Assembly (NCBI GenBank): GCA_017449675.1
Contig: JAFTFG010000017.1
Coordinates: 1 to 59,512, forward strand
Direction: 5' to 3'
DNA length: 59,512 bases
DNA from: Prevotella sp.
GTDB taxonomy: Bacteria; Bacteroidota; Bacteroidia; Bacteroidales; Bacteroidaceae
In this document: piece after piece, positions 5,545 through 56,128 of the stretch
How the letters are laid out: each line of letters opens with the position of its first letter
How positions within the stretch are numbered: position 1 is the first letter of the stretch
The notes under the pieces: model-generated
The model's input: only the letters and a program-made list of their open reading frames with translations
Database searches by the model: none
What the model was told of the DNA's origin: nothing
Position numbers and translations under genes: made by a program

Positions 5545-5572
5545 TTGGCTATTAGCAGTTAGCAATTGACTA
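5545..5572. repeat. Four-unit 7-bp array
   Basis: Four consecutive heptamers of the form TTRRCWR; the first is TTGGCTA and the last TTGACTA. It begins one base after the GGGtGRT stop codon and ends 9 bp before the terminator hairpin. The unit is nearly the same as in the array inside cysS (26687-26714). Confidence 0.6.
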
Positions 5573-5581
5573 AAAGCAATA

Positions 5582-5612
5582 AAAAAGCCTCGCCGAATGG
5601 CGGGGCTTTTTC
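5582..5612. terminator. Bidirectional terminator between GGGtGRT and Dabb genes
   Basis: An arm at 5583-5594 (AAAAGCCTCGCC) pairs with 5599-5610 across a 4-nt loop GAAT, with an A run before it and a T run after it. It can serve both the rightward operon and the leftward Dabb gene that ends at 5616. Confidence 0.85.
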
Positions 5613-5615
5613 TTT

Positions 5616-5921
5616 CTAGATCTCAAAATCCAAACATGAGCGCAGAACGGTATAGGGGCGCACCTTTGAGTTTGCCACCGCCACATGCTCAGGATGCTTG
5701 GAATAGCCTTTCAGCGCATCCTCACTCTCCAAGGTGCTGTCGAGCATCACGTCTGCATTAGAAGAGGCTAAGTGCCCATCAATATGCACTTTGACATCGA
5801 CAAGTCCTGGTACTTTACCTACCAAGCCTTCTAAACCTGCTTTAATACCTGCCTTTACGGCCTTCTTCTCCTCTTCGGAGAGTTCTGGATTCAATGTCCA
5901 GAGAATAATGTGCTTAACCAT
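5616..5921 (-). CDS. Dabb-family (stress-responsive alpha/beta barrel) protein
   Basis: A 101-aa protein starting MVKHIILWTL, with the ferredoxin-like dimeric alpha/beta-barrel pattern: first strand with the conserved His4, central helix rich in Lys/Glu (about 14-33), and a C-terminal motif around HPEHVAVANSKVRP. Members act as small dimeric enzymes or ligand-binding proteins; the substrate cannot be read from sequence. It lies downstream of the RluA-like gene, from which it is separated by only 32 bp, mostly a heptamer array, and it is probably co-transcribed. Confidence 0.85.
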   Translation of the reverse strand: MVKHIILWTLNPELSEEEKKAVKAGIKAGLEGLVGKVPGLVDVKVHIDGHLASSNADVMLDSTLESEDALKGYSKHPEHVAVANSKVRPYTVLRSCLDFEI

Positions 5922-5929
5922 ACGATTGT

Positions 5930-5957
5930 ATTTTAAAGATTAAATACTAAACATTAA
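5930..5957. repeat. Four-unit 7-bp array filling the rluA-like/Dabb spacer
   Basis: Four heptamers of the form ANNNTAA (for example AGATTAA, ATACTAA). They occupy nearly all of the 32-bp gap between the two leftward genes and include the RluA-like stop codon (5954-5956). Confidence 0.6.
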
Positions 5958-7300
5958 AAGGGAAGAGGTGCGACGAAGTGCATGTCCTCACCTGTAACGG
6001 GATGGTGAAACCATATTTGTTCTGCGTGCAGATAGAGACGATTGGCTTTCATGCCATACAGTTCATCACCCTTGATGGGTCTGCCCAGCCCTTCTGGATG
6101 GGCACAATGAATTCGTAACTGATGGGTACGCCCGGTCTGTGGCTCAAGAGCCACCATATCATCACTGAGAAACTCATAGTCTGTGACTGCTCGTTTACCA
6201 TGCTCGTCATCCACCACCTGACGCGGACGGTTCATGGGGTCAGGACGGAGTGGGAGACTGATTGTCCCCTTCTTGGGAATACCAGAGACCCTGGAATGTT
6301 CCAGCATAGCCAGGTAACGCTTCTTTACTTGATGTTTGATAAACTGCTGCTGAAGAGCATGATATGCTTCCATCGACTTCGCAACAATCAGTAATCCAGA
6401 GGTCCACATATCCAATCGATGGGCGACATGACTTTCAGGATAACGCTCTCGCATTAAAGTCTCCACACTATATTGCTCCATTCGTCCCGGGACACTGAGC
6501 AGACCGGAGGGTTTGTCAATCACCACAATGGCTTGGTCCTCGTAGACTGTTTTGACTTCTAACCGTGAGAAGCCAAAGGTCTCAGGGTCAGGATCGACCT
6601 CCAACCCTTGTAACATCCATGTCAGGATTGGCTTACATTTTCCTCGGCATGCAGGATAGAAATTCCCATGCTGTCGCAGTTCCTCTTTGGTGGACTGTCC
6701 CCACCAGAACTCCGCCATACAGACAGGCTTCAGTCCTTGCTGATAGGCGTATTGCAGAAGTTTTGGAGCACAGCAATCACCCGTTCCTCCAGGTGGTAGT
6801 GGGAATTTGCGTCGCAGTTTTTCCCGACTGTAATAAGACTGCCAGATAGCCACCAGGTCGTTCTCCTCACCCCGCGCATTCGACAACTGATACTGGTGAA
6901 AAAGCCACAACTGGAGATCTTGGGACATCTCCTTGGTATCGCCGGACTCTTTGGATAAGCAGGAAATCTCCCGCTCCTTGGTTTTAAAATAACCATCGGG
7001 CTGTTGAGCGTCAAAGACAGGAGGCACAAAATAGTCCCAGTCATTACGACCTGCCAACAGTCCGCTATAGGCGGCGAGGAAATAATATGGGGCTGATGGG
7101 TTTAATGGGGTTGATGGGGTGACGATGAGAACTCCGAACATCTTCCCTCGGTCGGCATCCTCCCTGATCTCTTCATGGCTACCGACATACGCCTGTACCT
7201 CCTTGGCCGCTAACTGACACAGCGGATGAGGCTCATAACAGAAAGGATACGTAAACCTCTCTGGCTTCGGGATGTCGGTATATAAGGGATGCATCTTCAT
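5954..7300 (-). CDS. RluA-family pseudouridine synthase with N-terminal extension
   Basis: A 448-aa enzyme that converts uridine to pseudouridine in rRNA and/or tRNA. The C-terminal catalytic domain (about 225-448) carries HRLDMWTSGLLIVAK with the catalytic Asp, then the RTHQLRIH motif. The N-terminal half is a region with conserved-looking Cys residues (GDCCAPK, YPACRGKC) that might bind a metal; it is seen in Bacteroidota homologues. Start: ATG at 7300 (alternative 7294), because the open frame further upstream runs through both divergent promoters. A -7 box ends only 9 bp before this ATG, so the mRNA may be almost leaderless. A four-unit 9-bp array encodes a Pro/Thr/Ser-rich linker at 7087-7122. 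Confidence 0.85.
   Translation of the reverse strand: MKMHPLYTDIPKPERFTYPFCYEPHPLCQLAAKEVQAYVGSHEEIREDADRGKMFGVLIVTPSTPLNPSAPYYFLAAYSGLLAGRNDWDYFVPPVFDAQQPDGYFKTKEREISCLSKESGDTKEMSQDLQLWLFHQYQLSNARGEENDLVAIWQSYYSREKLRRKFPLPPGGTGDCCAPKLLQYAYQQGLKPVCMAEFWWGQSTKEELRQHGNFYPACRGKCKPILTWMLQGLEVDPDPETFGFSRLEVKTVYEDQAIVVIDKPSGLLSVPGRMEQYSVETLMRERYPESHVAHRLDMWTSGLLIVAKSMEAYHALQQQFIKHQVKKRYLAMLEHSRVSGIPKKGTISLPLRPDPMNRPRQVVDDEHGKRAVTDYEFLSDDMVALEPQTGRTHQLRIHCAHPEGLGRPIKGDELYGMKANRLYLHAEQIWFHHPVTGEDMHFVAPLPF
7087..7122. repeat. Four-unit 9-bp array inside the RluA-like gene
   Basis: Four nonamers beginning ATGGG: ATGGGGCTG, then ATGGGTTTA, and two more. On the coding strand they give a Pro-rich linker (TPSTPLNPSAP) in the poorly conserved N-terminal extension. 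The array is 36 bp, so it keeps the frame. Confidence 0.75.
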
Positions 7301-7309
7301 TTTAACATG

Positions 7310-7317
7310 CAAATATA
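7310..7317 (-). promoter_or_regulatory. -7 box of the RluA-like gene
   Basis: TATATTTG read leftward (7317 to 7310). The first base of the ATG at 7300 lies 9 bp further on, leaving room for a leader of only a few bases. No clear -33 TTTG. Confidence 0.5.
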
Positions 7318-7338
7318 CATTATTTATTTTTATTTTCG

Positions 7339-7346
7339 TACCTTTG
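7339..7346 (+). promoter_or_regulatory. -7 box of the pectate lyase gene
   Basis: TACCTTTG, 33 bp before the ATG at 7380; divergent from the RluA-like promoter. No good TTTG at -33, so regulation by an activator is possible. Confidence 0.55.
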
Positions 7347-7379
7347 TCATCGAAAACTAAGACTAAAACAAAATAACAG

Positions 7380-13819: not shown

Positions 13820-13825
13820 ATTCTT

Positions 13826-13857
13826 TGATATTTTGTTATTCCGATATTTCGATATTC
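13826..13857. repeat. Four-unit 8-bp array between PAP2-like gene and purE
   Basis: Four octamers of consensus YGWTATTY (for example TGATATTT and CGATATTC) occupy 32 of the 38 bp between the two genes, ending exactly at the PAP2-like stop codon. It sits just upstream of the purE ATG, where a ribosome-binding region would be. Confidence 0.75.
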
Positions 13858-14481
13858 CTATATAAAAAGGATAGAGACGGCCGCACAGACAAACCCAACC
13901 CAGAATCCTCCTATCACCTGAGAGAGCGAATGCTGGCGGAGTATCATACGACAAGTACCCAAAATACCGGCCACTAAAAAGACGACACACATCCACCATA
14001 CTGGGTTAAAACCCAGATATTCCGCAAAGGCGAACAAGGCACCTCCGACTCCTCCAATGGCTGCTGTATGAGTGGATATCTTCCACCACACATTGATAAT
14101 CGCACAGATAATCTGCACCATCAATGCCGCTATCACAATAGAGATGATGAAATGCGGTATGTGCAACCGATTCATTACATAGACACAGGAGAAATAACAA
14201 ACGATAGAAAGCACATAAGGTATCATTCGACGCTCCCGATGTCCCAGTTCTATCAGGTTCCATCCCTGATAACGGCGATAGAGATGGATCATCACCGTAG
14301 GCAACAATATGGTGAAAAGGTAAACCATGATAAGTACCTGCAACTTATATGCCCATGGGAAGATACTCATATAACTGAATGTAAACAACGCTATCAGTCC
14401 GATAATAGGTAGATAGAATGGTGTGAAGAGCATGCTAATCACCCTGGCTGCTAAGATTATCTGTTGGTTTCTCCTCATCAT
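13858..14481 (-). CDS. PAP2-family membrane protein, degenerate active site
   Basis: A 207-aa protein with about six membrane helices. It resembles PAP2 (type 2 phosphatidic acid phosphatase) proteins: KISTHTAAIGG stands where PSGH normally is, and RMILRQHSLSQVIGG where the SRxxxxxHxxxD motif is. The usual final Asp is Gln, and the first KxxxxxxRP motif is not clear (RERRMIPY). Catalysis is therefore uncertain. It lies between rpoN (7-bp gap) and purE in the operon, and may act on undecaprenyl or lipid phosphates. Confidence 0.72.
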   Translation of the reverse strand: MMRRNQQIILAARVISMLFTPFYLPIIGLIALFTFSYMSIFPWAYKLQVLIMVYLFTILLPTVMIHLYRRYQGWNLIELGHRERRMIPYVLSIVCYFSCVYVMNRLHIPHFIISIVIAALMVQIICAIINVWWKISTHTAAIGGVGGALFAFAEYLGFNPVWWMCVVFLVAGILGTCRMILRQHSLSQVIGGFWVGFVCAAVSILFI

Positions 14482-14488
14482 CTTCTCT

Positions 14489-16635: not shown

Positions 16636-16660
16636 ACCGCTTTCTGTTTGATTCTATCGG

Positions 16661-16691: not shown

Positions 16692-16731
16692 GAAAATGTA
16701 AAATAATTGCATACTTCTCAACTAATTTTCG

Positions 16732-16739: not shown

Positions 16740-16763
16740 CAGTATCTTTACAGAAAGTTTTTC

Positions 16764-26505: not shown

Positions 26506-28008
26506 TTATTTATTCAGTCGCCATGTCACTCCGTCTTTGGTGTCCTTGACCTCAAAGCCGGCAGCGGCAAGTTCATCACGGATCTTGTCGGAGGTTGCCC
26601 AGTCTTTGTCTGCCTTTGCCTTGGCACGCAGGTCGAGAACCATGTCGACTACTTTTCCAAAAGCCTCCTCTCTCTCGTTAGTGCCATTGGCTGTTGACTG
26701 TTGGCTGTTGGCTTTCAGTCCGAGAATGTCGAAAGCGAAGAGGTGCATGGTCTCTGTGAGTTCCTTCAGGCAATCGGCACAGATAGTAGCCTTGTGGTCG
26801 ACGAGTTTGTTGACGACGGTGCATGCCTCGAAGAGATGGCTGATGACCTGTGGGGTGGCAAAGTCATCATTCATCGCATCATAGCATTTCTGACGCAACG
26901 CTTTCACGATTTTCTCAGTCTCTGCGTCACACTTGTCGCTAGCCTGTACCCTGTCTAAGTCGCTGATGGCATTCATCAGTTTCTCCAGTCCCTTCTCCGC
27001 TGCCTGCAGTGCCTCGTTGGAGAAGTCGACCGTACCACGATAGTGGGCGGAGAGCACGAAGAAACGGATGGTCATCGCTGTATAAGCCTTCTCCAGCAAT
27101 GGATGGTTGCCCGTGAAGAACTGCTCCAGGGTGATGAAGTTATTATACGACTTACCCATCTTCTGTCCGTTAATGGTCAGCATGTTGTTGTGCATCCAGT
27201 ACTTGACAGCCTGATGTCCCATCGATGCGGTAGCCTGGGCGATCTCACACTCATGATGGGGGAAGACAAGGTCCATACCGCCACCATGAATATCAAAGGT
27301 CTCTCCTAAGTATTTACGACCCATCGCCGTACACTCACAGTGCCAGCCAGGGAAACCGTCTGACCAAGGAGAGGGCCAGCGCATGATATGCTCGGGTTGT
27401 GCTTTCTTCCAAAGGGCGAAGTCTGCCTGGTTGTGTTTCTCCCCCACACCAGCGAGTTCACGGCTCTCGTCCTTGATGTTCTCCAAGGAGCGACCGCTTA
27501 GGATTCCATACTTATATTTCTTGTTGTAAGCCTCGATATCGAAATAGATAGAACCGTTCGACTCATAGGCGAAACCATTGTCCAGAATCTGCTGTACCAG
27601 TTGCTGCTGCTCGATGATATGCCCTGTGGCATGGGGCTCGATAGAGGGGGGCAGCACGTTCAGTGCATCCATCGCCTGATGATAGCGGTTGGTATAGTAC
27701 TGGGCGATTTCCATCGGCTCCAACTGCTCCAGCCGTGCCTTCTTGGCTATCTTGTCCTCTCCCTCGTCAGCGTCATGCTCCAAATGACCTACATCCGTGA
27801 TATTACGGACATAGCGCACCTTATAGCCTAAGTGCTTCAGGTAACGGAACACCAAGTCGAAGGTGATGGCAGGACGGGCATGCCCCAGATGGGGATCACC
27901 ATAGACGGTAGGACCACAGACATACATACCCACATGAGGGGCATTGATAGGTTCGAAACGCTCTTTCTGGCGTGTCAGCGTATTGTAGATAACCAGTTTT
28001 GATTCCAT
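26506..28008 (-). CDS. cysS: Cysteinyl-tRNA synthetase
   Basis: A 500-aa class I aminoacyl-tRNA synthetase charging tRNA-Cys. HIGH motif is HLGH in DPHLGHARP, and KMSKS is KMGKS. Zinc ligands are visible: the Cys in VCGPTVYG, and Cys/His in WHCEC and PHHECE. ATG at 28008 ([10 protein letters not shown]) matches relatives better than the ATG two codons upstream. Near the C-terminus, just after FDILGLKAN, a heptamer array (26687-26714) encodes a short Ser/Gln/Thr/Asn linker before the last helical domain. Confidence 0.95.
26687..26714. repeat. Four-unit 7-bp array inside cysS
   Basis: Plus-strand heptamers TTGGCTG, TTGACTG, TTGGCTG and TTGGCTT follow one another. The unit is a variant of that at 5545-5572 and, in the other orientation, close to that at 49438-49465. 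It encodes part of a variable linker (NSQQSTANG) between conserved domains of CysS. Confidence 0.8.
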
Positions 28009-28030
28009 ACACATAAATTTATTTTGGCTG

Positions 28031-28038
28031 CAAATTTA
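28031..28038 (-). promoter_or_regulatory. cysS -7 box
   Basis: TAAATTTG read leftward, 22 bp before the cysS ATG at 28008. Confidence 0.6.
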
Positions 28039-28046
28039 CGAAAAAA

Positions 28047-28074
28047 TATGCATTATGAACTATGAATTATGAAT
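28047..28074. repeat. Four-unit 7-bp array in the cysS/CoA-transferase promoter region
   Basis: Four heptamers: TATGCAT, TATGAAC, then TATGAAT twice. The array covers the place where the -33 element of the rightward promoter (box at 28082) should be, and no TTTG is found there. Confidence 0.8.
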
Positions 28075-28081
28075 TATTTTG

Positions 28082-28089
28082 TACCTTTG
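28082..28089 (+). promoter_or_regulatory. CoA-transferase -7 box
   Basis: TACCTTTG, 29 bp before the ATG at 28119. The -33 position falls inside a heptamer array. Confidence 0.65.
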
Positions 28090-28118
28090 CAACCAAAATC
28101 ATAAAATATTAATAAGGT

Positions 28119-29664: not shown

Positions 29665-29798
29665 TTTGGTAGCGCCCGCTGTCAATATTAGCAGCGGGCG
29701 CTGCTAATAATAGCACCGCCCGCCACTATACCAGAAAGAACGTTACTTACACCCAGAAAGTGCCATCCTTTCACCCTTAAAACTGCCGTTCTTTCCCC
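29645..29798. repeat. 22-bp-period repeat block (about seven units, two sub-types)
   Basis: This fills most of the intergenic gap. Units start near 29645, 29667, 29689 and 29711 (core like AGCAGCGGGCGCTGCT, self-complementary), then 29733, 29755 and 29777 (core like AGAAAGTGCCATCCTTTC, also nearly self-complementary). The core at 29646-29661 recurs at 29690-29705, exactly 44 bp on; AGAAAG recurs at 29733 and 29755. I read it as one four-unit array followed by a second, more degenerate one. It is not CRISPR: there are no unrelated spacers. Confidence 0.65.
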
Positions 29799-31276: not shown

Positions 31277-32503
31277 ATGATGGATGAAGCGACACGGAAA
31301 TATATACTTGCACACCGCCATGAGGATGTGCGGCAACTGGCACTAAGCGGCAGGAATGCCGAGGTGGACATGCCGATGGCACTCCAGCAGATCGCAGGGT
31401 GGCAGACAGCACAGAAGAAGTTACCGTCATGGGCCGCTGTAGAAGACATCCTCTACCCGCCTCATCTGAATATGGAGCAATGTTCCAGTGAGCAGACGGC
31501 TCGTTATAAGGCAAAAGTCGTTGCTCGAAATATTGATATCTCGAAATCCCATCAGGTCTTTGTCGACCTGACAGGTGGATTTGGTATTGACTTCTCCTTC
31601 ATGTCACGTCCGTTTAGGAAACGGATTTATGTGGAGCGTAATATGGAACTCTGCGAGATAGCCCGACATAATTTCCAACTCTTGGGGTTGGAGGCAGAGA
31701 TCGTGTGTGACAATGCAGAGGAATATCTTGCCCGGATGCCCCATGCCAACGTGGTATTCTTGGACCCTGCACGAAGGGATGCGCATGGCAGTCGTACCTA
31801 TGGTATTGAGGACTGCACCCCTAATGTTATCGAACTCCTGCCTTTGTTGAAGGAGAAAGCCGACACGATCATCCTGAAACTATCGCCCATGCTCGACTGG
31901 CGCAAGGCGGTCAGCGACTTAGGAGGGGTCAGTGAGGTGCATATCGTCAGTGTTGACAATGAGTGCAAAGAACTATTACTGGTCATCCGCCAAGACCTTC
32001 CCACCGCTCCCTTAATGGTTTGTGTCAACGGAGATAGGAGTCTACGGATAGTTTCCAACGTGGAAACGAATAGTTTCTCCCATGAAAACTCACAGTTTCT
32101 TCCGAAAAGACTGATAGTTTCTGCCGTAGAAACTATTCAGAGACTAACGCTTCTTGAGCCGAATGCCAGTATCATGAAGGCTGGATGCTTCAAGGAGATA
32201 GAACAGATGTTCGGTATCCAGCAGTTGTCGGCTAACTCCCATCTCTTCGTATCAGAACATGAGATCCCCGATTTCCCTGGCAGACAATTCCGGATAGAGA
32301 CCGTCACCTCCATGAACAAGCAGGAACTGAAGGCGGCGTTGCAGGGAATCGAACGAGCAAATATCACTGTTCGTAACTTCCCGATGACGGTAGATTCCCT
32401 GAGAAAGAAACTGAAGGTGAAAGACGGTGGTGAGATGTTTATTTTCGGAACAACCATGTCGGATGGTTCACACAAGTTACTTATTTGCCGTAAAATAGGT
32501 TAA
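31277..32503 (+). CDS. Class I SAM methyltransferase-like protein with THUMP-like domain
   Basis: A 408-aa protein. The central Rossmann methyltransferase has VDLTGGFGID (SAM-binding loop, about 94-103) and FLDPARRD (about 160-167). A C-terminal THUMP-like domain (about 330-408) would bind RNA. Target unknown. Two arrays fall in frame here: an 8-bp one (31518-31549) just before the SAM loop, and a 4 x 22-bp one (32051-32138) between the two domains. The start could be either of two adjacent ATGs (31277, 31280). Confidence 0.82.
   Translation: MMDEATRKYILAHRHEDVRQLALSGRNAEVDMPMALQQIAGWQTAQKKLPSWAAVEDILYPPHLNMEQCSSEQTARYKAKVVARNIDISKSHQVFVDLTGGFGIDFSFMSRPFRKRIYVERNMELCEIARHNFQLLGLEAEIVCDNAEEYLARMPHANVVFLDPARRDAHGSRTYGIEDCTPNVIELLPLLKEKADTIILKLSPMLDWRKAVSDLGGVSEVHIVSVDNECKELLLVIRQDLPTAPLMVCVNGDRSLRIVSNVETNSFSHENSQFLPKRLIVSAVETIQRLTLLEPNASIMKAGCFKEIEQMFGIQQLSANSHLFVSEHEIPDFPGRQFRIETVTSMNKQELKAALQGIERANITVRNFPMTVDSLRKKLKVKDGGEMFIFGTTMSDGSHKLLICRKIG
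31518..31549. repeat. Four-unit 8-bp array inside the THUMP-like gene
   Basis: Octamers from 31518; units 2-4 are CGAAATAT, TGATATCT and CGAAATCC, related to the 13826-13857 unit (CGATATTC). Unit 1 is weaker. It encodes the variable stretch before VDLTGG. Confidence 0.5.
32051..32138. repeat. Four-unit 22-bp array inside the THUMP-like gene
   Basis: GTTTC recurs at 32051, 32073, 32095 and 32117, exactly 22 bp apart. Each unit has a GTTTC...GAAAC dyad around a CCGT-like centre (unit 4: AGTTTCT and AGAAACT around GCCGT). The 88 bp encode a low-complexity linker (IVSNVETNSFSHEN... and IVSAVETI) between the methyltransferase and THUMP-like domains. Confidence 0.85.
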
Positions 32504-42669: not shown

Positions 42670-43983
42670 ATGAAGAAACTCTATATAGAGACTTACGGTT
42701 GTCAGATGAATGTCGCTGACTCAGAGGTGGTAGCCAGTGTGATGCAAATGGCCGGCTATGAGTCGACAGAGGATATCAATGAAGCGGATGCCGTATTCCT
42801 GAATACCTGCTCCGTCAGAGACAATGCGGAGCAGAAGATATATCATCGCCTGGATGCGCTGGCTGCCATGAAAAAGAAACACCCGTTAATCATCGGTGTT
42901 CTTGGTTGTATGGCGGAACGCGTGAAAGACGACCTGTTGGAAAATCACCATTGTGATTTGGTGGCTGGTCCTGACGCTTATCTCTCCCTACCTGACTTGA
43001 TAGCACAAGCGGAGACTGGACATAAGGCAATGAATATTGAACTGTCGACCTCAGAGACTTACAGGGATGTCGTTCCGCAACGGATAGGACTGGGGCATAA
43101 GATTGGTGGCTTTGTCAGTATCATGCGAGGATGCAACAATTTCTGCCATTATTGTATTGTTCCTTATACCCGAGGCCGGGAGCGTTCCAGAGACATTGAG
43201 AGTATTCTGCGTGAAGTTCGCGACTTAAGAGACAGAGGATTTAAAGAAGTGACGCTGCTGGGGCAGAATGTGAATAGTTATCGCCTAGACAACCTAGAAC
43301 CTCTAGGATTTCCTAGATTATTAAGAAAGGTAGCCGAAGAGGCCCCCCAGATGCGTATCCGTTTCACGACCTCACACCCGAAGGATATGAGTGATGAGAC
43401 GTTGCGGGTCATCGCTGAGATGCCTAATGTCTGTAAGCATATTCATCTGCCTGTACAGAGTGGCAGTGACAGAATTCTGAAACTGATGAACCGCAAATAT
43501 ACCCGTGAGTGGTATCTCGACCGTGTGGCGGCTATTCGTCGCATCATCCCTGACTGTGGACTGTCGACGGATATCTTCGTAGGCTATCACTCAGAAACGG
43601 AGGAGGACCATCAACTTAGTTTGGACCTGATGCGTGAGGTAGGCTATGACTCTGCCTTTATGTTCAAATATTCTGAGCGACCAGGCACTTATGCCTCCAA
43701 ACATCTGCCTGACGACGTACCAGAGGAAGAAAAGATTCGTCGTCTGAATGAACTCATCGCTCTGCAGACAGAAATCTCTGCCCAACAGAACAAGAAAGAC
43801 GAGGGCAAGGAGTTTGATGTCTTGGTAGAAGGCTTCTCGAAACGTAGCCGTCAGCAACTCTGTGGACGTACCGAGCAAAACAAGATGGTGGTATTCGACA
43901 AAGGTTCCCATCATATTGGGGAGACAGTGCGTGTGAGAATCACCAATAGTACCAGTGCAACTTTATTTGGAGAAGAGGTATGA
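42670..43983 (+). CDS. miaB: tRNA-2-methylthio-N6-dimethylallyladenosine synthase
   Basis: A 437-aa radical-SAM methylthiotransferase that adds the 2-methylthio group to i6A37 of tRNA. N-terminal UPF0004 domain with three cluster cysteines (ETYGCQMN, LNTCSVR, GVLGCMAE), radical-SAM CNNFCHYC in the middle, and a TRAM domain at the C-terminus. A four-unit 9-bp array (43284-43319) encodes RLDNLEPLGFPRL after GQNVNSY, a position that varies among relatives. It overlaps the ABC gene by 4 bp. Confidence 0.95.
   Translation: MKKLYIETYGCQMNVADSEVVASVMQMAGYESTEDINEADAVFLNTCSVRDNAEQKIYHRLDALAAMKKKHPLIIGVLGCMAERVKDDLLENHHCDLVAGPDAYLSLPDLIAQAETGHKAMNIELSTSETYRDVVPQRIGLGHKIGGFVSIMRGCNNFCHYCIVPYTRGRERSRDIESILREVRDLRDRGFKEVTLLGQNVNSYRLDNLEPLGFPRLLRKVAEEAPQMRIRFTTSHPKDMSDETLRVIAEMPNVCKHIHLPVQSGSDRILKLMNRKYTREWYLDRVAAIRRIIPDCGLSTDIFVGYHSETEEDHQLSLDLMREVGYDSAFMFKYSERPGTYASKHLPDDVPEEEKIRRLNELIALQTEISAQQNKKDEGKEFDVLVEGFSKRSRQQLCGRTEQNKMVVFDKGSHHIGETVRVRITNSTSATLFGEEV
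43284..43319. repeat. Four-unit 9-bp CTAG array inside miaB
   Basis: CTAG occurs at 43285, 43294, 43303 and 43313 (steps of 9, 9 and 10). It contains the perfect inverted repeat CCTAGA/TCTAGG around ACC (43293-43307). CTAG is rare in most bacterial genomes, so four in 32 bp stands out. The first three give Leu codons in frame. Confidence 0.65.
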
Positions 43984-45809: not shown

Positions 45810-47614
45810 AGCAAGGAGCGTTCTATCTGGTGAAGTTCTATCTGGTGACGGTACTGTTGTTTCTCGTTGCCAAGGTTTTCTTTATGCTCTATCACCATAG
45901 CACTCATGATTTTTCGTTCACGGATGTCATGCAAGTGATTCAACATGGTCTTTCCCTAGACCTCAGTTTCTCTCTCTATCTTTTCATTATTCCTTTTTTG
46001 GCTACAGCCATCTCTCTATGGACAAATATACCTCGATGGATATTCAATACCTACTATCTTCTGCTGGCTATTCTTCTCTCATTGGCTTTCGTGGCAGACA
46101 CCAGTCTTTATGAGTTCTGGATGTTCAAACTCGATGCCTCATGCCTGCAGTATCTAGAGACACCGACAGAGGCGATGGCGAGTGTTAGTACAGGTTATAT
46201 TATTATTCGACTGTTATGTCTGATCCTTTCTTCATGTATCATCTATTGGATCTATTATCGACTGACTACCCAATATCAGTCCGTAAACTTTCGACAGCGT
46301 ATCGCAGGCACAATATCCGCCATATTACTTATTCCCCTTATCATCATTGGTATTAGAGGTGGATTAGGTGAGTCAACCACGAATATCGGACAAGTGTATT
46401 ATTCACAGAATCAGTTTCTGAATCATTCTGCTGTCAATCCGGTATTCTCCTTCTTTGCCTCTTTTGAAAAGACTGCCAGCAATCATGTGACCTATCATTT
46501 TATGGATGATGCTACATGTGAGAAAATTATTCAAGAACTATACAATACACAGAGCATTGACAGCGATACCTTGTTGACAACACAAACTCCCAATATCATC
46601 GTTATCTTATTGGAAAGTTGCGGGGGTGAGTTTACGGAAATAGGAGGTAGAACAGATATTACCCCTAACTTAAATCGTTTTGCCAAAGAAGGGATTTATT
46701 TCACGAATTGCTATGGGAATACCTGGCGTACCGACCGTGGTACAGTTTGCACATGGAGCGGCTATCCCTCATTCCCAACGATGTCAGTCATGAAGATTCC
46801 CTCCAAGTCACATACCTTACCGAACATAGCCCGAACCTTACAGACAGAACGAGGCTATAATACCCATTATCTCTATGGTGGTGACATTAATTTCACCAAC
46901 ATGCGTAGTTATCTTGTTTCGGGGGGCTTTGGTGATTTGACATGGAAAGACGATTATACCCAGGAAATGCAAAACACTGCAAAATGGGGCGTTCGAGACG
47001 ACATCACCTTTGAAACGCTTTACCAGTTGACTACGACGATGCACCAACCTTATCTGATTGGCTATTCTACACTAAGTAGTCATTCTCCTTGGGATGTCCC
47101 TATTCATCATTTTGACGACGAGGTACTGAATGCGTTCTATTATCTCGATCAGTGTGTAGGACAGTTTATAGAGAAATTGAGGAAGAGTAAAGAATGGGAG
47201 AATACATTGGTGATTATGTTACCAGATCATGGTGTCTTTTATCAGGATCTTGACGAATCCAATCCTTTGTTGAACCACATTCCCATGATCTGGATGGGAG
47301 GAGTTGTGAAAGAACCTCGTCGCATAGAACAAATATGTAACCAGACAGATCTGCCTGCCACACTTTTAGGACAACTGGGTATCAACCATGACGAGTATAC
47401 TTTCAGCCGTGATGTCCTGAGTGCCAGTTATACACATCCTTTGGGTATTCACACCTATGATGACGGCTTTACAATGATTGACAGTGCCGGCTTCGTCAAC
47501 TATGATTTTATTAGTAATCAGGTCATCACACAACAAGGTACAGGGATACAAAAACTCATCCAACAGGCAAAAGCAATCTTACAGGCTGCAACAAAAGACT
47601 TGAATGAAAGATGA
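45806..47614 (+). CDS. LtaS-like membrane phosphotransferase/sulfatase, first copy
   Basis: A 602-aa enzyme: five N-terminal membrane helices (within about 1-190) and a large periplasmic alkaline-phosphatase-superfamily domain. Metal and active-site residues: Glu in VILLESCGGEF, a Thr within RTDRGT as likely nucleophile, and Asp-His in MLPDHG. LtaS makes lipoteichoic acid, which a Gram-negative does not have. Relatives transfer phosphoglycerol or phosphoethanolamine to glycans or lipid A; that is the likely role. Confidence 0.82.
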   Translation: MKQGAFYLVKFYLVTVLLFLVAKVFFMLYHHSTHDFSFTDVMQVIQHGLSLDLSFSLYLFIIPFLATAISLWTNIPRWIFNTYYLLLAILLSLAFVADTSLYEFWMFKLDASCLQYLETPTEAMASVSTGYIIIRLLCLILSSCIIYWIYYRLTTQYQSVNFRQRIAGTISAILLIPLIIIGIRGGLGESTTNIGQVYYSQNQFLNHSAVNPVFSFFASFEKTASNHVTYHFMDDATCEKIIQELYNTQSIDSDTLLTTQTPNIIVILLESCGGEFTEIGGRTDITPNLNRFAKEGIYFTNCYGNTWRTDRGTVCTWSGYPSFPTMSVMKIPSKSHTLPNIARTLQTERGYNTHYLYGGDINFTNMRSYLVSGGFGDLTWKDDYTQEMQNTAKWGVRDDITFETLYQLTTTMHQPYLIGYSTLSSHSPWDVPIHHFDDEVLNAFYYLDQCVGQFIEKLRKSKEWENTLVIMLPDHGVFYQDLDESNPLLNHIPMIWMGGVVKEPRRIEQICNQTDLPATLLGQLGINHDEYTFSRDVLSASYTHPLGIHTYDDGFTMIDSAGFVNYDFISNQVITQQGTGIQKLIQQAKAILQAATKDLNER

Positions 47615-49542
47615 AACAACTATTGAACAAGACATATGCTCCCTTATCGGCTGTGCTCTGGAACCTGCTCTTGGTTTTTATAGTCTATCAAGTTGCAAGA
47701 CTGGAGTATTATCTGGAGAATATCAATTATCTATCTTATGACTTTGAGATTTTTCGCGGTGGACTACTCTTTGATACCTCTGCCATTCTCTATACAAATG
47801 TTGTTTATGTCGTAATGATGCTCTTTCCGTATCACAAAAAGGAAAACAAACTATATCATCAAATCTGTAAATGGCTGTATCTTAGTATCAATAGTCTGGC
47901 ATTAGCCAGTAACTTGATGGACTCTGTCTATTTTCAATATACAATGCGCCGCACTACCACCACTGTTTTTGAGGAATTTTCCAATGAACAGAATTTGGGA
48001 GGTATTATCGGAACAGAATTGTTACATCATTGGTACCTGGTACTCTTGTTTATACTCTTAGTTGCCGCTTGGTGGAAACTCTATGCAAAACCTCAACAGA
48101 GTCATCAAGAACTAATCTGGTGGAGGTATGACCTCCTCTGTCTGGCATCTTTATTCTTATTCACTCCTTTCTGTATTGCCGGTATGCGAGGTGGTTTTAC
48201 TACTGCTGTGCGACCTATCACCATATCCAATGCCAACCAATATGCCAATAGACCTATAGACGCTGCATTAGTACTGAATACGCCCTTCTCCTTGATTCGC
48301 ACCATAGGAAAAAGCGTGTTTATCGTTCCACATTATTATAATAGTGAACAAGAATTGGAAGCGGTATATTCTCCAATACATACTAGTTCTACTACTCTTT
48401 CTAGTTCTACTAGAAAGAATATTGTCATCCTCATTGTCGAGAGTTTTGGGCGAGAATATATCGGTGCTTTGAACAAAGACCTTGAGGGTGGGAGATACAA
48501 AGGATATACCCCTTGTGTCGATTCCTTGATTAGTCATAGCACGACTTTCCGTTATAGTTTCTGCAATGGTCGTAAGAGTATCGATGGCATGCCAAGCATC
48601 CTGTCAAGTATTCCGATGTTTGTAGAGCCATTTATCCTTACGCCTGCCTCAATGAATGACTATACAGGATTGGCAGGAATCTTAGGAGCAGAGGGTTATG
48701 AGACGGCATTCTTCCATGGCGCACAGAATGGCTCGATGGGTTTTCAGGCTTTTGCGCAGAAAACGGGGTTTCAGCACTATTACGGTCGCACGGAATATGA
48801 GGCAACCAAAGGCACATCTGATTTCGATGGTACCTGGGCTATTTGGGATGAGCCTTTCCTACAGTATTATGCAGAGGAAATGGGTAGGATGAAAGAGCCT
48901 TTTATGACTGCCGTCTTCACGGCATCCAGCCATCACCCTTTCGTGGTGCCAGAGAAATATAAGGCACAATTCCCTGAGGAGCATCTGGAAATCCAGAAAT
49001 GTATCAGATATACAGATATGTCTATCGGTAAGTTCTTTGAGACAGCAAGTAGACAACCCTGGTATGAGAACACCATCTTTATTCTCACCAGTGATCATAC
49101 CAATATGAGTGATCATGCGGAATATCAAACAGACCTTGGGGGCTTCTGCTCACCAATTATTATCTTTGAGCCAAGTAACCCCATAGGTGAAGTGCAGGAT
49201 AAAATCGCTCAGCAAATAGACATTCTGCCAACAGTGTTAGGTAAGTTAGGTTATCCTAAGAAATATTTTGGTTTTGGTATTGATGTGCTGAACACGCCCA
49301 AGGAAGACACTTGGGCCGTCAATTACCTCAACGGCATCTACCAGTATGTGAAGAATGGATATGTACTCCAGTTTGACGGGCAGCGTACTAAAGGATTGTA
49401 TGCCCTTACAGACTCCCTGATGCAGCACAACCTCATACATCAGCCATCAGCCATTAGCCATCAGCCCCAGATGGAGAAAGAGTTGAAGGCGATTATCCAG
49501 CAGTATATGGAACGGATGACACAGAATGCTTTACGACCTTAG
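47611..49542 (+). CDS. LtaS-like membrane phosphotransferase/sulfatase, second copy
   Basis: A 643-aa paralogue of the preceding gene, overlapping it by 4 bp. About five N-terminal membrane helices, then the catalytic domain: Glu in ILIVESFGREY, likely nucleophile Ser or Thr near GRKSIDGMPS, and Asp-His in LTSDHTNMSDH. Two repeat arrays lie in frame: 48383-48418 encodes a Ser/Thr-rich linker just before the catalytic domain, and 49438-49465 encodes a His/Gln/Pro/Ser tail. Its end overlaps the convergent acyltransferase by 50 bp. Confidence 0.82.
   Translation: MKQLLNKTYAPLSAVLWNLLLVFIVYQVARLEYYLENINYLSYDFEIFRGGLLFDTSAILYTNVVYVVMMLFPYHKKENKLYHQICKWLYLSINSLALASNLMDSVYFQYTMRRTTTTVFEEFSNEQNLGGIIGTELLHHWYLVLLFILLVAAWWKLYAKPQQSHQELIWWRYDLLCLASLFLFTPFCIAGMRGGFTTAVRPITISNANQYANRPIDAALVLNTPFSLIRTIGKSVFIVPHYYNSEQELEAVYSPIHTSSTTLSSSTRKNIVILIVESFGREYIGALNKDLEGGRYKGYTPCVDSLISHSTTFRYSFCNGRKSIDGMPSILSSIPMFVEPFILTPASMNDYTGLAGILGAEGYETAFFHGAQNGSMGFQAFAQKTGFQHYYGRTEYEATKGTSDFDGTWAIWDEPFLQYYAEEMGRMKEPFMTAVFTASSHHPFVVPEKYKAQFPEEHLEIQKCIRYTDMSIGKFFETASRQPWYENTIFILTSDHTNMSDHAEYQTDLGGFCSPIIIFEPSNPIGEVQDKIAQQIDILPTVLGKLGYPKKYFGFGIDVLNTPKEDTWAVNYLNGIYQYVKNGYVLQFDGQRTKGLYALTDSLMQHNLIHQPSAISHQPQMEKELKAIIQQYMERMTQNALRP
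48383..48418. repeat. Four-unit 9-bp CTA(G/C) array inside the second LtaS-like gene
   Basis: Nonamers at 48383, 48392, 48401 and 48410; CTAGTTCTA is present twice (units 1 and 3). It includes the perfect dyad CTTTCTAGT/ACTAGAAAG around TCT (48397-48417). Similar in step and in CTAG content to the miaB array. Confidence 0.75.
49438..49465. repeat. Four-unit 7-bp array inside the second LtaS-like gene
   Basis: CATCAGC, CATCAGC, CATTAGC and CATCAGC in a row. In reverse complement (TGGCTGA) this is one base from the cysS unit (TGGCTGT). It encodes HQPSAISHQ near the protein's C-terminus. Confidence 0.85.
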
Positions 49543-50458: not shown

Positions 50459-50480
50459 CCTATAATCTGGTTTAGATGTA

Positions 50481-50512
50481 CAAAGGTAACATTTTCATGG
50501 ATAATAGACAAA
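50481..50512 (-). promoter_or_regulatory. Acyltransferase promoter
   Basis: Leftward TTTG (50512-50509), 20-bp spacer, TACCTTTG (50488-50481), 22 bp before the ATG at 50458. Confidence 0.75.
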
Positions 50513-50526
50513 TATTTAAATCAAAT

Positions 50527-50558
50527 TTTGCCTAGTCCCATAAAAAATAGTACTTTTG
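50527..50558 (+). promoter_or_regulatory. Promoter of the GT90-GT11-DUF6492 operon
   Basis: TTTG (50527-50530), 20-bp spacer, TACTTTTG (50551-50558), 21 bp before the ATG at 50580. Confidence 0.75.
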
Positions 50559-50579
50559 CAACTGTAAGACAGAAGCCTG

Positions 50580-52402: not shown

Positions 52403-52407
52403 CGGTT

Positions 52408-53241: not shown

Positions 53242-53243
53242 TC

Positions 53244-54236
53244 CTATCGGTCGCCTGAGAGGATGGCATAAAGTCTGTGAACTTTCTCATCTAGAAAATA
53301 AGCAACAGACACACAAAGAAAAACCACCAAAGGAGGTATCAGGAGATAAGCAATCCAACATCCCACCGTATTTCCCATATTGGCAATCACATAGCGTTGT
53401 AAGACATGCACAGGAATATAGTGAGTCGCATACAGGAAAAACGAATACCGATATATCCTGTGGGGAGCAAAATGAAACACTTTGTCCAGGAGATCGTAAA
53501 GACCGATATAGAAAAAGACGGAAGTCCAGGCCCTGAGATTCACACATAACATACTGTCGTATTGATGACTGAGCCATACGGAAACCGGAAAAGCAACAAG
53601 GGCCAAAAATGTAATCCATAAAGGTTGGGGCTTAAACAGATAGTCGTTATAATGTACACCTAACAAGGCTCCCATCATATAGATGGACATCCACACCAAT
53701 GGACTGGCAAACGGATGATGGAAGGCAATTCCGATGATCAAGAAAATGATGACAGCAATGACTGCTGTCCGCAAACTACGAGCCAGATAATAGAAAACAG
53801 GAGCGGCAAGGGCATAAACGATGATGACCCCGACATACCACAGAACCGTATATTTACAACCAAGAATATTCCCGATTACCTCCGTCCAGGAATCGAAATA
53901 AAAACGGTCACTCACATACTGATTACCCGTAGACGATATCACCAAGAACCATGCTAGGGCACCAAGGGCATTCCACAACAAATAAGGAATGACCAAAGAG
54001 CGGAATCTGGTCTTCAGTTTCTCTGAATACTTATTGATGTGAAAATTACGGAAAAAGAGGAAACCTGTTATCAAGAAGAATGGAGCAACAGCGTCCTCTC
54101 CTATCTCGTTAAAGATCAGCAGTTGTTGGAAATAATCCGGTACTATCTCCCATCGGGGCAGACGGGAATGAGTCCACACAATGGCAAGCATCATGAAGAA
54201 AGAGAGATTCTGTATCTTGATAGAACGCTGTTTCAT
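53244..54236 (-). CDS. Acyltransferase 3 family membrane protein (OafA/YrhL-like)
   Basis: A 330-aa integral membrane protein with about ten helices. The N-terminal LSFFMMLAIVWTHSR contains the catalytic-type His, and the family pattern FFLITGFLFFR follows. Such proteins O-acetylate surface sugars. Third gene of the leftward GT2-GT87-acyltransferase operon, 8 bp after the fused gene. Confidence 0.85.
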   Translation of the reverse strand: MKQRSIKIQNLSFFMMLAIVWTHSRLPRWEIVPDYFQQLLIFNEIGEDAVAPFFLITGFLFFRNFHINKYSEKLKTRFRSLVIPYLLWNALGALAWFLVISSTGNQYVSDRFYFDSWTEVIGNILGCKYTVLWYVGVIIVYALAAPVFYYLARSLRTAVIAVIIFLIIGIAFHHPFASPLVWMSIYMMGALLGVHYNDYLFKPQPLWITFLALVAFPVSVWLSHQYDSMLCVNLRAWTSVFFYIGLYDLLDKVFHFAPHRIYRYSFFLYATHYIPVHVLQRYVIANMGNTVGCWIAYLLIPPLVVFLCVSVAYFLDEKVHRLYAILSGDR

Positions 54237-54244
54237 GATTTCTA

Positions 54245-56128
54245 CTATCTGACTGATAATGCTAGTCGGAATCCTACTTCCATCCTACGGCGACGTTGGT
54301 CGTACATAAAACGGTTGGTGACTCGACTATACACAGAAGAACAATCATAGGCACCACCACGGATGACATGAAAATCGGTAGAAGCCTTTCCTGTTGGTGT
54401 CTTACGATACCAGTCCTCGCAAAACTCCCATACGTTACCAGACATATCATACAGACCTAACTCATTAGGTCTTAACTGTCCTACTGGCTTGTGGTGATCA
54501 TCAAAGTCATTCTCCAATGTATAGGCTACCTCCCTGAAATTATTACTACCAGCATAAAGATAACCCTTCGATTTCCTACCTCCTCTGGCAGCATATTCCC
54601 ATTCTGCCTCTGTCGGTAAACGGAAAACTAACCCTGTCATAATATTAAGCCTGACTATAAATTCTTGACACTGGTCATATGTAACGTATTCAACAGGCAT
54701 CTTCGCTCCTTTCTGTTTTGAACGATTCTTGGACATCACTTTATCCCATAACTCCTGAGTCACCTCTGTCTCCCCGATATAGTAGTCAGTCAACGTTATT
54801 TGATGGCGCACTTCGTCAGCATCAGCAAGGGTGTCGTTTGGAAGGGCTCCCATGGTAAACGTACCTCCTTGTACTTGTATCATCCGGAATGTCACTCCTT
54901 TCAATTTAATAATCTTCTTATTTTGAGCCACCACTCCCAAAGGCAATATGAAAAGGAATAAACAAATAAGCATTCCTCTAACCTCTAACCGCTTACCTTT
55001 AACTTCTTCAACGGGTCCGACAGCCCACCAGATAACACGAAGCCAACAGAAGAAATAGGTATATACATCCAACCAAAACGTACGGTGAATGAAATTATGC
55101 AACCAAGCAGGACAGAGAACATCAGTGGGCAGGATACAGAAATTAACGACCAATGACCAGAACAATGTCCAATCCAACCAAGTACGCTTGGGCTGCAACC
55201 AAAACGCCATAGCATAGAACGGTAGACAAATCACATAGGTATGGGTCTCAGGACAGTCACTGAAGAGAATCATAAAACCAGTCAGTACCGCTAATGCCTG
55301 AACACGGAAACGAAATTCTTTCCAACGCTTATAACGCCAGAAGAAAAGAATACCCAGTATCACCATGACGATGACCTGTACTATACGATAGTTTGGTAAC
55401 AAGAAAGGCTTAAGTCCTATGGCAAAGAGAATTCCGATATAGTCGGAGTCACTATGATGTGCCGCTATCATATCGAACATCTGTTGATAGAGTACAAAAG
55501 GATTGTCGAAGTTGGGATTTAACAAAGGTAAACACAAGAAGAATGCACCACATAGGATGGCATAGCCAAAATTACGCCATACTTTCGGATAACAGAACAG
55601 AATAGCAAGTTCTGCGGCTCCGTAAATCTTTGTCGTGGCTGATAACATAATGAGGAAAACTGCCCAGAAACCCTTACCTCGCTCTAATAGGATAAAGGCG
55701 AACAAGTAGATATAGGCTACAATGATGTTATGCTGATAGCAGAAGACTGTCTGCAGCACCACAGAGAGCATGAACACAAAGATATACAATTTATACTTGT
55801 CAAGTTGCTGTGGCAACCATTTAACAGCAAGTGAGAAAAGCGTATAATTACCGATATTCCATATATATGGTCCTAACCACCATGGCAGATAGAAGATGGG
55901 AGCGAAGAGGACACTGAACACAGGAGAGTAGAGAAAATATATCTGATGTGCCTGTGCATACTCTAAATTATAAGGACTCAAACCTTCCCAGAACATACGA
56001 GTGGAGTCCTGATAGTCGAAGTAGTTGGTGTTACGTCCACGAAACACTTCTACAGAGGTAGCGATGAGGACGATCAGCAGTCCTAAGCCCCACCAGAAAT
56101 ATTTGCTCGAGAAGATTTTCTTACTCAT
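54245..56128 (-). CDS. Apparent fusion: GT87-like membrane protein plus FGE-sulfatase-domain protein
   Basis: A single 627-codon frame that reads like two genes. Residues 1-373 form a GT87/DUF2029-like membrane glycosyltransferase with about ten helices, similar to the protein at 57105-58286. Residues 374-385 (VEEVKGKRLEVR-like) come from a heptamer array. From the ATG at 54973 (residue 386) a typical signal peptide begins (MLICLFLFILPLGVVAQ), followed by a complete SUMF1/FGE-sulfatase domain: GGTFTMG, YYIGETEVTQELW, RLPTEAEWEYAARGG, GLYDMSGNVWEFCEDW and RGGAY...GFRLAL. An internal signal peptide makes a natural fusion unlikely. Either the second part starts separately at 54973, or the repeat removed a stop codon. 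The FGE part is more likely structural than a true formylglycine enzyme. Confidence 0.8.
   Translation of the reverse strand: MSKKIFSSKYFWWGLGLLIVLIATSVEVFRGRNTNYFDYQDSTRMFWEGLSPYNLEYAQAHQIYFLYSPVFSVLFAPIFYLPWWLGPYIWNIGNYTLFSLAVKWLPQQLDKYKLYIFVFMLSVVLQTVFCYQHNIIVAYIYLFAFILLERGKGFWAVFLIMLSATTKIYGAAELAILFCYPKVWRNFGYAILCGAFFLCLPLLNPNFDNPFVLYQQMFDMIAAHHSDSDYIGILFAIGLKPFLLPNYRIVQVIVMVILGILFFWRYKRWKEFRFRVQALAVLTGFMILFSDCPETHTYVICLPFYAMAFWLQPKRTWLDWTLFWSLVVNFCILPTDVLCPAWLHNFIHRTFWLDVYTYFFCWLRVIWWAVGPVEEVKGKRLEVRGMLICLFLFILPLGVVAQNKKIIKLKGVTFRMIQVQGGTFTMGALPNDTLADADEVRHQITLTDYYIGETEVTQELWDKVMSKNRSKQKGAKMPVEYVTYDQCQEFIVRLNIMTGLVFRLPTEAEWEYAARGGRKSKGYLYAGSNNFREVAYTLENDFDDHHKPVGQLRPNELGLYDMSGNVWEFCEDWYRKTPTGKASTDFHVIRGGAYDCSSVYSRVTNRFMYDQRRRRMEVGFRLALSVR
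54975..55002. repeat. Four-unit 7-bp array at the GT87/FGE junction
   Basis: Plus-strand heptamers CCTCTAA, CCTCTAA, CCGCTTA and CCTTTAA end 2 bp from the second gene's probable ATG (54973). On the coding strand they give the basic linker EVKGKRLEVRG. It lies where an intergenic spacer would be expected. Confidence 0.75.

What the first reader, a model, noticed from the sequence alone, without database searches (positions are those of the whole stretch)
5545..55002. A dispersed class of four-unit tandem mini-arrays with unit lengths 7, 8, 9 and 22 bp
At least a dozen sites hold a short tandem block with about four imperfect units: 7 bp (5545, 5930, 26687, 28047, 49438, 54975), 8 bp (13826, 31518), 9 bp (7087, 43284, 48383), 22 bp (29645, 32051). 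The units differ from site to site, but several heptamers are related (TTGGCTA, TTGGCTG, TGGCTGA) and both octamers are YGATAT-like. They occur in spacers and in frame in linkers of essential genes. Total lengths cluster at 28, 32, 36 and 88 bp. This suggests a common process (insertion of a fixed-size element, or a replication/repair product) rather than ordinary slippage, which would give variable copy numbers. I found them by eye, so selection for four may be biased. I know of no described element with this rule.
Basis: partly seen in the sequence, partly recalled or inferred. Interest (0 to 1): 0.85.

Follow-up and report, generated by a model that had tools for sequence, protein, structure and literature searches.

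The report
Heptad and palindromic repeats in Prevotella
Rumen Prevotella genomes are rich in short head-to-tail repeats of 7, 8 and 22 letters; there is no fixed four-unit element, and inside genes the count of four is best explained by the reading frame, because adding three 7-letter units is the smallest change that leaves the protein readable.

Summary
The window lies in a genome whose closest named relatives are rumen Prevotella. Seven of the 13 listed sites beat every Markov control, one nearly does (1 of 20), and five do not. In 1.42 Mb of named Prevotella loci, tandem arrays peak at periods 7 (160 vs 3.0 expected), 22 (62 vs 2.0) and 8 (45 vs 1.3), besides multiples of 7 and of 3. They are rare in the other Bacteroidales families sampled.

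They are not one class with a fixed count. Heptad arrays run from 2 to about 14 units. Near-perfect heptad arrays between genes decline with copy number (14 of 59 have 4.0-4.9 units). Inside genes they spike there (15 of 22, p=0.0005; 12 of 18 without the CysRS linker, p=0.0014). So four in genes fits the smallest in-frame expansion (1+3 units), not a mobile element of set size.

The 22-bp class is separate: palindromic, hairpin-forming, species-specific dispersed repeats.

Surprising residue: orthologous sites carry arrays with unrelated units in different species, and 13 of 46 CysRS linkers hold one, in the cases tested without a visible local precursor. Best placed as a new variant of known heptanucleotide and minisatellite repeats.

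The parts
5545..5572 (+). degenerate heptad array just after the stop codon of the GGGtGRT gene (4494-5543)
   Evidence: 14 of 21 period matches, reached in 14 of 20 Markov windows: not significant on its own
5933..5958 (+). heptad array TTAAACA-like between a Dabb gene and the pseudouridine synthase gene; the related species G053 has a different heptad array (TTTGATG) at the same place
   Evidence: marginal alone (4 of 20 Markov windows)
7087..7120 (-). 9-bp repeat in the pseudouridine synthase gene (5954-7699), before its recognised domain; related species have other sequence there
   Evidence: period divisible by 3, so codon-compatible
13824..13863 (-). octad array (CGATATTT-like) at the 5' end of the AIR carboxylase ORF, before the recognised domain
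26687..26713 (-). heptad array AGCCAAC x4 (gene sense), in frame in the variable linker of cysteinyl-tRNA synthetase (26506-28014)
28047..28077 (+). heptad array TATGAAT x4.4 between the divergent cysS and acetyl-CoA hydrolase genes, just upstream of a TACCTTTG promoter-like box; related species carry arrays of other units at the same place
29671..29723 (.). 22-bp palindromic units (AGCGCCCGCTG / CAGCGGGCGCT in inverted order) after the acetyl-CoA hydrolase gene
31518..31549 (+). degenerate octads in frame near the N-terminus of the THUMP-like gene (31277-32503); L102 has 24 nt (three octads) more there
   Evidence: chance level alone
32051..32138 (+). four 22-bp palindromic units in frame in a linker of the THUMP-like gene; four units in all five close species, with different sequence in each
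43284..43319 (+). claimed 9-bp units in a MiaB-like radical SAM gene linker; G051 has heptads (AGTTCAT) at this place
   Evidence: chance level alone
48381..48413 (+). claimed 9-bp units in a sulfatase gene linker; G051 has a CTCACCT heptad array and two other species (L186, L188) have other heptad-like runs at this place
   Evidence: chance level alone
49438..49466 (+). heptad array CATCAGC x4.1 in frame near the C-terminus of the sulfatase gene (47611-49542); G053 has CATCAGC units there, G051 has CTTCACT units
54975..55007 (-). heptad array CCTCTAA-like in the ORF 54245-56128, between the GT87 and FGE-sulfatase domains
   Evidence: 1 of 20 Markov windows as good

Best explanation
Two unrelated kinds of repeat are mixed. 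(A) Heptad and octad mini-satellites: DNA synthesis or repair in this genus readily makes local tandem duplications in steps of 7-8 bp (inferred). They appear and vanish quickly in spacers and unstructured protein linkers, and their units are replaced or homogenised over time (shown by orthologs with different units at one site). Copy number is open-ended between genes. In genes only gains divisible by three survive, so the smallest surviving expansion of a 7-, 8- or 22-bp unit is from one to four copies (frame filter shown statistically for heptads; the 1-to-4 step is inferred). (B) The 22-bp arrays are palindromic, hairpin-forming repeats whose unit is specific to each species where tested and dispersed at many sites per genome, mostly intergenic and occasionally in frame inside a gene.
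For: Period-specific excess. Broad heptad copy number. Near-perfect arrays with at least 2.5 copies: 15 of 22 coding against 14 of 59 intergenic have 4.0-4.9 units, Fisher p=0.0005; without the CysRS linker, where several arrays are at one orthologous site, 12 of 18, p=0.0014. All arrays of score 10 or more: 44 of 58 coding against 79 of 147 intergenic have 3.5-4.9 units, p=0.004; in N-free loci without CysRS 36 of 49 against 77 of 145, p=0.013. Ortholog length differences divisible by three: 258 of 265 coding pairs against 45 of 114 intergenic pairs; 212 of the coding pairs are CysRS (205 divisible), the other 53 at 11 sites are all divisible. L125:5007 is 21 nt longer than all 30 of its array-free orthologs; L102 has 24 nt more than the window at the octad site. 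Intergenic example: 8 nt in L107 against a 44-nt GAGGGAA array in L126 at the same point. 22-bp class: units more palindromic than shuffled (0.584 vs 0.504); long self-complementarity in 35 of 97 arrays against 2 of 97 random stretches; 218 hits of the G016 theme in G016 against 0-7 in nine other genomes; 111 hits of the G040 theme in G040 (13 with the pattern reversed) against 1-5 in seven others. The 22-bp units are more alike within than between genomes (0 of 2000 permutations as high).
Against: In 11 of 11 coding heptad sites tested (8 of them the CysRS linker), the nearest array-free ortholog shows no significant local precursor of the unit (p from 0.17 to 1.0), which simple slippage would predict; of 20 intergenic heptad sites 7 do show one at p below 0.05. 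Net gains at coding sites are often 3, 6, 9, 12 or 15 nt rather than 21, so sequence was also lost or replaced. Two nearly identical 35-bp arrays (34 of 35) sit in the CysRS genes of L103 and L126, while L126's close relative L107 has none. Among all (imperfect) intergenic heptad arrays a mode at four remains, only partly explained by detection. Smaller palindromy excesses exist at periods 18, 21, 23, 42 and 44. Gene calls were ORF-based, so some 'coding' arrays may lie in false upstream extensions.
Confidence: 0.68

Rival explanations
1. The arrays are a mobile or templated element: preformed blocks of about four to five units are inserted into, or overwrite, linkers and spacers, for example by a repair polymerase or reverse transcriptase adding repeats at breaks.
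For: No significant local precursor in the nearest array-free ortholog of 11 of 11 coding heptad sites tested, 8 of them the CysRS linker. Same array (34 of 35 bases) in the CysRS genes of L103 and L126 with L126's close relative L107 array-free. Identical heptad units are shared by 180 genome pairs against 36.5 in shuffles.
Against: Broad copy number with partial units. No fixed added length: coding differences to array-free orthologs range from -30 to +36. 7 of 20 intergenic heptad sites do show a local precursor. Heptad units are only weakly more alike within a genome (96 of 2000 permutations as high). Target-site duplications were not tested systematically; I noticed none in the alignments read.
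Confidence: 0.12
2. Array-bearing alleles arose rarely and spread between Prevotella species by short-tract homologous recombination, giving the patchy distribution.
For: Unit classes (AGCCAAC, TCAATGG, AGTCAGG) are scattered over the cysS tree. L103 and L126 share an almost identical array although L126's flanks are 92% identical to array-free L107.
Against: Different sites in a species carry different units, and the same site in related species often carries unrelated units and even another period, so much turnover is local. No recombination test was run.
Confidence: 0.2
3. The arrays are selected regulatory sites, such as promoter spacers or protein-binding arrays, whose length is held near 30 bp.
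For: At the acetyl-CoA hydrolase promoter 7 species (window, L102, L103, L104, L117, L132, L152) have arrays of 4.3-4.7 copies 41-45 nt before the ATG despite different units; L102 and L104 are degenerate, score 8. Four 22-bp units are kept in five species with compensatory changes in the arms.
Against: Only 23 of 79 orthologous upstream regions carry a period-7 or period-8 array of score 10 or more, at several different positions. Arrays also sit in protein linkers.
Confidence: 0.15
4. The 22-bp class is a REP/BIME family moved by a Y1 (RAYT) transposase.
For: Palindromic, dispersed and in alternating orientation. Two Y1 genes of G016 lie next to 22-bp theme units.
Against: G040, a single-contig genome with its own 22-bp family, has no Y1 match. 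33 fetched Y1 loci (105 kb) hold 2 period-22 arrays, 19 per Mb, not above the 29 per Mb background. That scan is insensitive: it missed the degenerate theme units beside the two G016 genes.
Confidence: 0.08
5. Chance, low complexity or assembly artefact.
For: Five of the 13 listed sites are matched in 4 or more of 20 Markov windows. Loci of four isolates hold few arrays.
Against: Strong excess over Markov controls in the Prevotella sets, including single-contig G016 for periods 7 and 22.
Confidence: 0.03

Closest known systems
Heptanucleotide simple-sequence repeats (LSSR of Mrazek et al. 2007, and the TAACTGA repeats of Beggiatoaceae, Cyanobacteria and some Bacteroidetes; PMC4679880: abstract, passages and section 12 seen; the 2007 paper itself not held)
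   Same: Seven is the favoured unit length, arrays are mostly intergenic and short, copy number varies and related species differ. The 2007 study, as cited there, proposed a polymerase-related preference for 7 nt.
   Different: Here the units are many and degenerate rather than one heptamer. Octads are enriched too, many arrays are in frame in protein linkers, and the in-gene count peaks at four.
G-rich heptad repeats of Xanthomonas and Nostoc, and the three repeated heptanucleotides of Calothrix (PMC4692102, passages seen)
   Same: Intergenic heptad arrays whose length and sequence vary between related species at the same gene pair.
   Different: Mostly not G-rich, found also in coding linkers, no single consensus.
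BrickBuilt MITE minisatellite of Porphyromonas gingivalis (PMC4596501, passages seen)
   Same: Bacteroidales, tandem units of about the same length (23 nt), dispersed through the genome, variable copy number, predicted long stem loops.
   Different: Unit is 22 bp, the unit differs between Prevotella species, one array lies inside a gene, and no leader, tail or terminal inverted repeats were established.

Membership tests
Heptanucleotide simple-sequence repeats (LSSR/STRR type) | unit of 7 nt favoured over neighbouring unit lengths | tested here: met
   period 7 160 arrays; 6: 29; 8: 45; 9: 38; 10: 23 (expected 1.3-3.0)
Heptanucleotide simple-sequence repeats (LSSR/STRR type) | mainly intergenic | tested here: met
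   563 per Mb intergenic against 30 per Mb in ORFs (ORF-based calls, which overstate coding)
Heptanucleotide simple-sequence repeats (LSSR/STRR type) | copy number varies between species | tested here: met
TAACTGA repeat family | one heptamer sequence dominates and near variants are rare as repeats | tested here: not met
   many units; the commonest (AAAAGTG) makes 13 of 153 genome-by-unit types
BrickBuilt-type MITE | tandem units of about 23 nt forming long stem loops, dispersed | tested here: met
   (for the 22-bp class only; unit is 22 nt)
BrickBuilt-type MITE | conserved leader and tail with terminal inverted repeats | tested here: inconclusive
   36 flank-flank hits among 53 G016 clusters, which may be further degenerate units; not resolved
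BrickBuilt-type MITE | exclusively intergenic | tested here: not met
   in frame inside the THUMP-like gene in five species
REP/BIME moved by RAYT | linked Y1 tyrosine transposase | tested here: not met
   none in G040; no enrichment of period-22 arrays in 33 Y1 loci (insensitive scan); two G016 Y1 genes do lie beside theme units

The most novel reading that the evidence does not exclude
Rumen Prevotella has a process that writes preformed heptad arrays (about four to five units, in part from a shared pool of units) into linkers and spacers, overwriting about 20 nt of older sequence rather than growing from a local seed, and returns to the same sites in different lineages. In parallel, each species maintains its own 22-bp palindromic repeat family.
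Probability: 0.12. Interest if true: 0.85.

Novelty: new variant of a known kind. Interest (0 to 1): 0.48.

Why it matters
If the frame explanation holds, it gives a simple reason for a count of four in coding mini-satellites and shows protein linkers, even in a tRNA synthetase, evolving by repeated gain and replacement of out-of-phase repeats. The 22-bp families, different between species yet built alike and kept palindromic, are a good system for asking how dispersed repeats are homogenised. The missing local precursors at coding sites make the origin of heptad arrays directly testable in close strains.

Tried and rejected
Inverted partners for heptad arrays within 250 bp: 6 of 50 arrays score 13 or more against 2 of 50 in the reversed control, and none in the own genome, so hairpins are not the rule for heptads, though 9 of 97 heptad surroundings are strongly self-complementary against 1 of 97 random stretches. 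Genome-specific heptad themes: suggestive at first, weak once arrays closer than 1 kb were dropped (96 of 2000 permutations; octads 39 of 2000). RAYT as driver of the 22-bp class: not supported as a general rule. A shared 5' or 3' position: heptads lie equally often nearer the stop and nearer the start in tandem gene pairs (33 and 33). Stop-codon traps: 93% of 122 intergenic heptad units hold a stop triplet on some strand against 86% (s.d. 2%) in shuffles, a small effect. Known RNA families: none in the window at gathering scores. In one search the copy-number table for near-perfect arrays had a contaminated control (runs of N read as A); it was redone without the four loci with N and only one search is used. 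Literature: ten searches found no description of these Prevotella arrays in the held library; most subscription papers are not held.
Full report
WHAT WAS CHECKED. The window is contig 29 of a 1.80 Mb, 54% complete genome. Its closest named relatives are mostly rumen Prevotella genomes. The 13 listed sites were read, scanned with TRF and each compared with 20 order-3 Markov copies of the window. Seven of 13 were never matched, one was matched in 1 of 20 copies, one in 4 of 20, and four in 12 to 20 of 20. So about half to two thirds of the list is solid and the weaker entries are what an eye finds by chance.

THE CLASS IS REAL AT GENOME SCALE. I scored local stretches where a base equals the base one period later. 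In the window, period 7 gives 5 arrays against 0.8 expected. In 376,656 bp of other stretches of this genome, periods 7, 8 and 22 stand out (21, 16 and 15 arrays against 1.4, 1.6 and 3.4); three of the 20 stretches were chosen because of pattern hits. In 80 named Prevotella loci (1,415,853 bp) the counts are 160, 45 and 62 against 3.0, 1.3 and 2.0. Multiples of 7 (14, 21, 42) and of 3 (such as 15, 18, 24) are high too, and 9, 10 and 11 are weaker (38, 23 and 18). Single-contig genomes agree in part: G016 (400 kb) has period 7 11 vs 2.6 and period 22 29 vs 2.4, but period 8 only 1 vs 1.8; G040 (120 kb) has 8 period-22 arrays but 1 of period 7 and none of period 8. Four isolate loci of 21.5 kb hold few arrays: two have none of these three periods, and ne3005 and khp7 have period-8 arrays, ne3005 also one of period 7. 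About 308 kb from other Bacteroidales families gives 4, 3 and 1 arrays (expected 1.6, 0.8 and 0.4), so the abundance looks like a feature of this genus within what was sampled.

COPY NUMBER. Of 182 heptad arrays (neighbours merged, score 12 or more) 85 have 4.0-4.99 copies, the median is 4.6 and the maximum 18.3; the longest unmerged one has 13.7. After subtracting controls the heptad excess peaks at 4.0; periods 9 and 10 decline, period 8 is nearly flat up to 4.5 in one scan, and period 22 declines apart from a bump at 3.5-3.9 in the laxer scan. Simulation shows that imperfect arrays below about 3.5 copies are under-detected, so I repeated the count on near-perfect arrays only, in 146 of 150 loci (those without runs of N, 2,703,553 bp), split by ORF-based gene calls. 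Intergenic: 29 (5.7 expected), 16, 12, 12, 6 and 8 arrays at 2.0, 2.5, 3.0, 3.5, 4.0 and 4.5 copies, then 5 more above that: a decline, no clear peak. Coding: 28 (36 expected), 1, 2, 1, 7 and 8 at the same steps, then 3: a gap and then a spike at four. With at least 2.5 copies, 15 of 22 coding and 14 of 59 intergenic arrays have 4.0-4.9 units (Fisher p=0.0005). Four of the 22 coding arrays lie in the CysRS linker; without them it is 12 of 18 (p=0.0014).

WHY FOUR IN GENES. Lengths of 7, 8 and 22 are not divisible by three, so an array inside a gene can gain units only in threes (21, 24 or 66 nt) unless other indels compensate. From one unit, four is the first allowed count. Aligned to orthologs, coding heptad sites differ in length by multiples of three in 258 of 265 pairs (19 sites), intergenic ones in 45 of 114 (34 sites). 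These pairs are not independent: 212 of the 265 are of the CysRS linker (8 sites, 205 divisible); the other 11 sites give 53 of 53. One site (L125:5007) is exactly 21 nt longer than all 30 of its array-free orthologs, and at the octad site L102 is exactly 24 nt longer than the window. The frame filter is shown; that arrays start from one unit is inferred. Many coding sites gained 3, 6, 9, 12 or 15 nt net, so neighbouring sequence was also lost or replaced.

SAME PLACE, DIFFERENT UNITS. Related species often carry an array at the very place of a window array but with another unit: site 49438 is CATCAGC in the window and in G053 but CTTCACT in G051; site 48383, weak in the window, is CTCACCT in G051; site 5930 is TTTGATG in G053. 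Others are array-free there. In the CysRS linker 13 of 46 orthologs show an array (score 9 or more) with at least four unit classes scattered over the gene tree, while many others share a short array-free linker. L103 and L126 have arrays identical at 34 of 35 bases, yet L126's flanks are 92% identical to those of array-free L107. For 11 of 11 coding heptad sites compared with the nearest array-free ortholog (8 of them CysRS; sites whose ortholog has under 10 nt there were left out), that ortholog holds no significant precursor of the unit; for intergenic sites 7 of 20 do, some because the 'empty' relative holds a decayed array. Identical heptad units recur across genomes (180 sharing pairs against 36.5, s.d. 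5.8, in shuffles). These facts fit fast turnover plus some recombination between species, but they are also what a writing or insertion process would leave; this is the open part.

PROMOTER SITE. Upstream of the acetyl-CoA hydrolase gene 23 of 79 sequences, the window included, carry a period-7 or period-8 array of score 10 or more (my count from its table). In seven species including the window an array (two of them degenerate) lies 41-45 nt before the ATG, next to a TAnnTTTG box (Bacteroidetes promoter consensus, recalled). In other species it lies after the upstream stop codon or in the leader. In the syntenic subset of 23 the spacer is longer with an array of score 10 or more (median 103, n=13) than without any (82, n=8); two rows with weaker arrays were left out.

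THE 22-BP CLASS IS SEPARATE. Its units are palindromic (mean 0.584 against 0.504 shuffled, 80 arrays; smaller excesses exist at some other periods), and whole arrays form long hairpins (35 of 97 against 2 of 97). Units are alike within a genome and unlike between genomes (0 of 2000 permutations as high). A theme read from G016 has 218 hits in that genome, 0 in the reversed control and 0-7 in nine others. Another theme from G040 has 111 hits there, against 13 in its control and 1-5 in seven others. In the 420-kb G016 sample, 56 loci hold 1, 2, 3, 4 or 5 units (22, 18, 6, 8 and 2 loci), so four is not preferred. At the window's THUMP-like gene the four units are kept in all five close species with equal total length but different sequence, and the paired arms change together. 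The other readable orthologs lack such an array, except that L205 shows three palindromic units by my reading (23 rows, one of them empty). G040 has no Y1 transposase, and 33 Y1 loci show no excess of period-22 arrays, so a RAYT does not explain the class in general, although two Y1 genes of G016 lie beside theme units which that scan was too coarse to see.

COMPARISON AND NOVELTY. Heptads as the favoured long repeat unit in bacteria, and a polymerase-based suggestion for it, are in print (Mrazek 2007 as cited in passages of PMC4679880 and PMC4692102). Tandem 23-nt units with long stem loops are known in Porphyromonas (PMC4596501, passages). What I did not find in ten searches of the held library is the Prevotella arrays themselves, the in-gene count of four with its frame explanation, the replacement of units at orthologous sites, or species-specific 22-bp families. 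I therefore file this as a new variant of a known kind.

Noticed in passing
window 28020-28110: The divergent cysS and acetyl-CoA hydrolase genes appear to have back-to-back promoter boxes (GGCTGCAAATTTAC and GTACCTTTGCA) with the heptad array between them.
   Followed up: partly
L269 (G016:C1:610881-611222) and L271 (G016:C1:624154-624495): Two Y1-type transposase genes of G016 lie next to clusters of the genome's 22-bp theme units, arranged in opposite orientations around a 33-bp step.
   Followed up: partly
L210, THUMP-like gene linker: The same linker that holds the 22-bp array in the window's close relatives holds a long near-perfect hairpin (GTAACAGGGGGACGGTTC... and its complement) in this species.
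   Followed up: no
L126 and L107, spacer aligned to L140:5143-5201 and L075:8600-8628: Heptad arrays lie next to REP-like hairpins such as CACCGCTTCGCGGTTC.
   Followed up: no
window 54245-56128: One ORF joins a GT87 glycosyltransferase domain and an FGE-sulfatase domain, with the heptad array between them; it may be a fusion or two genes joined by a lost stop.
   Followed up: no
window 13824-13863, L102:12584, L103:5237, L158:7331: Octad arrays in several species share a CGnnATnn-like pattern, unlike the heptads.
   Followed up: partly
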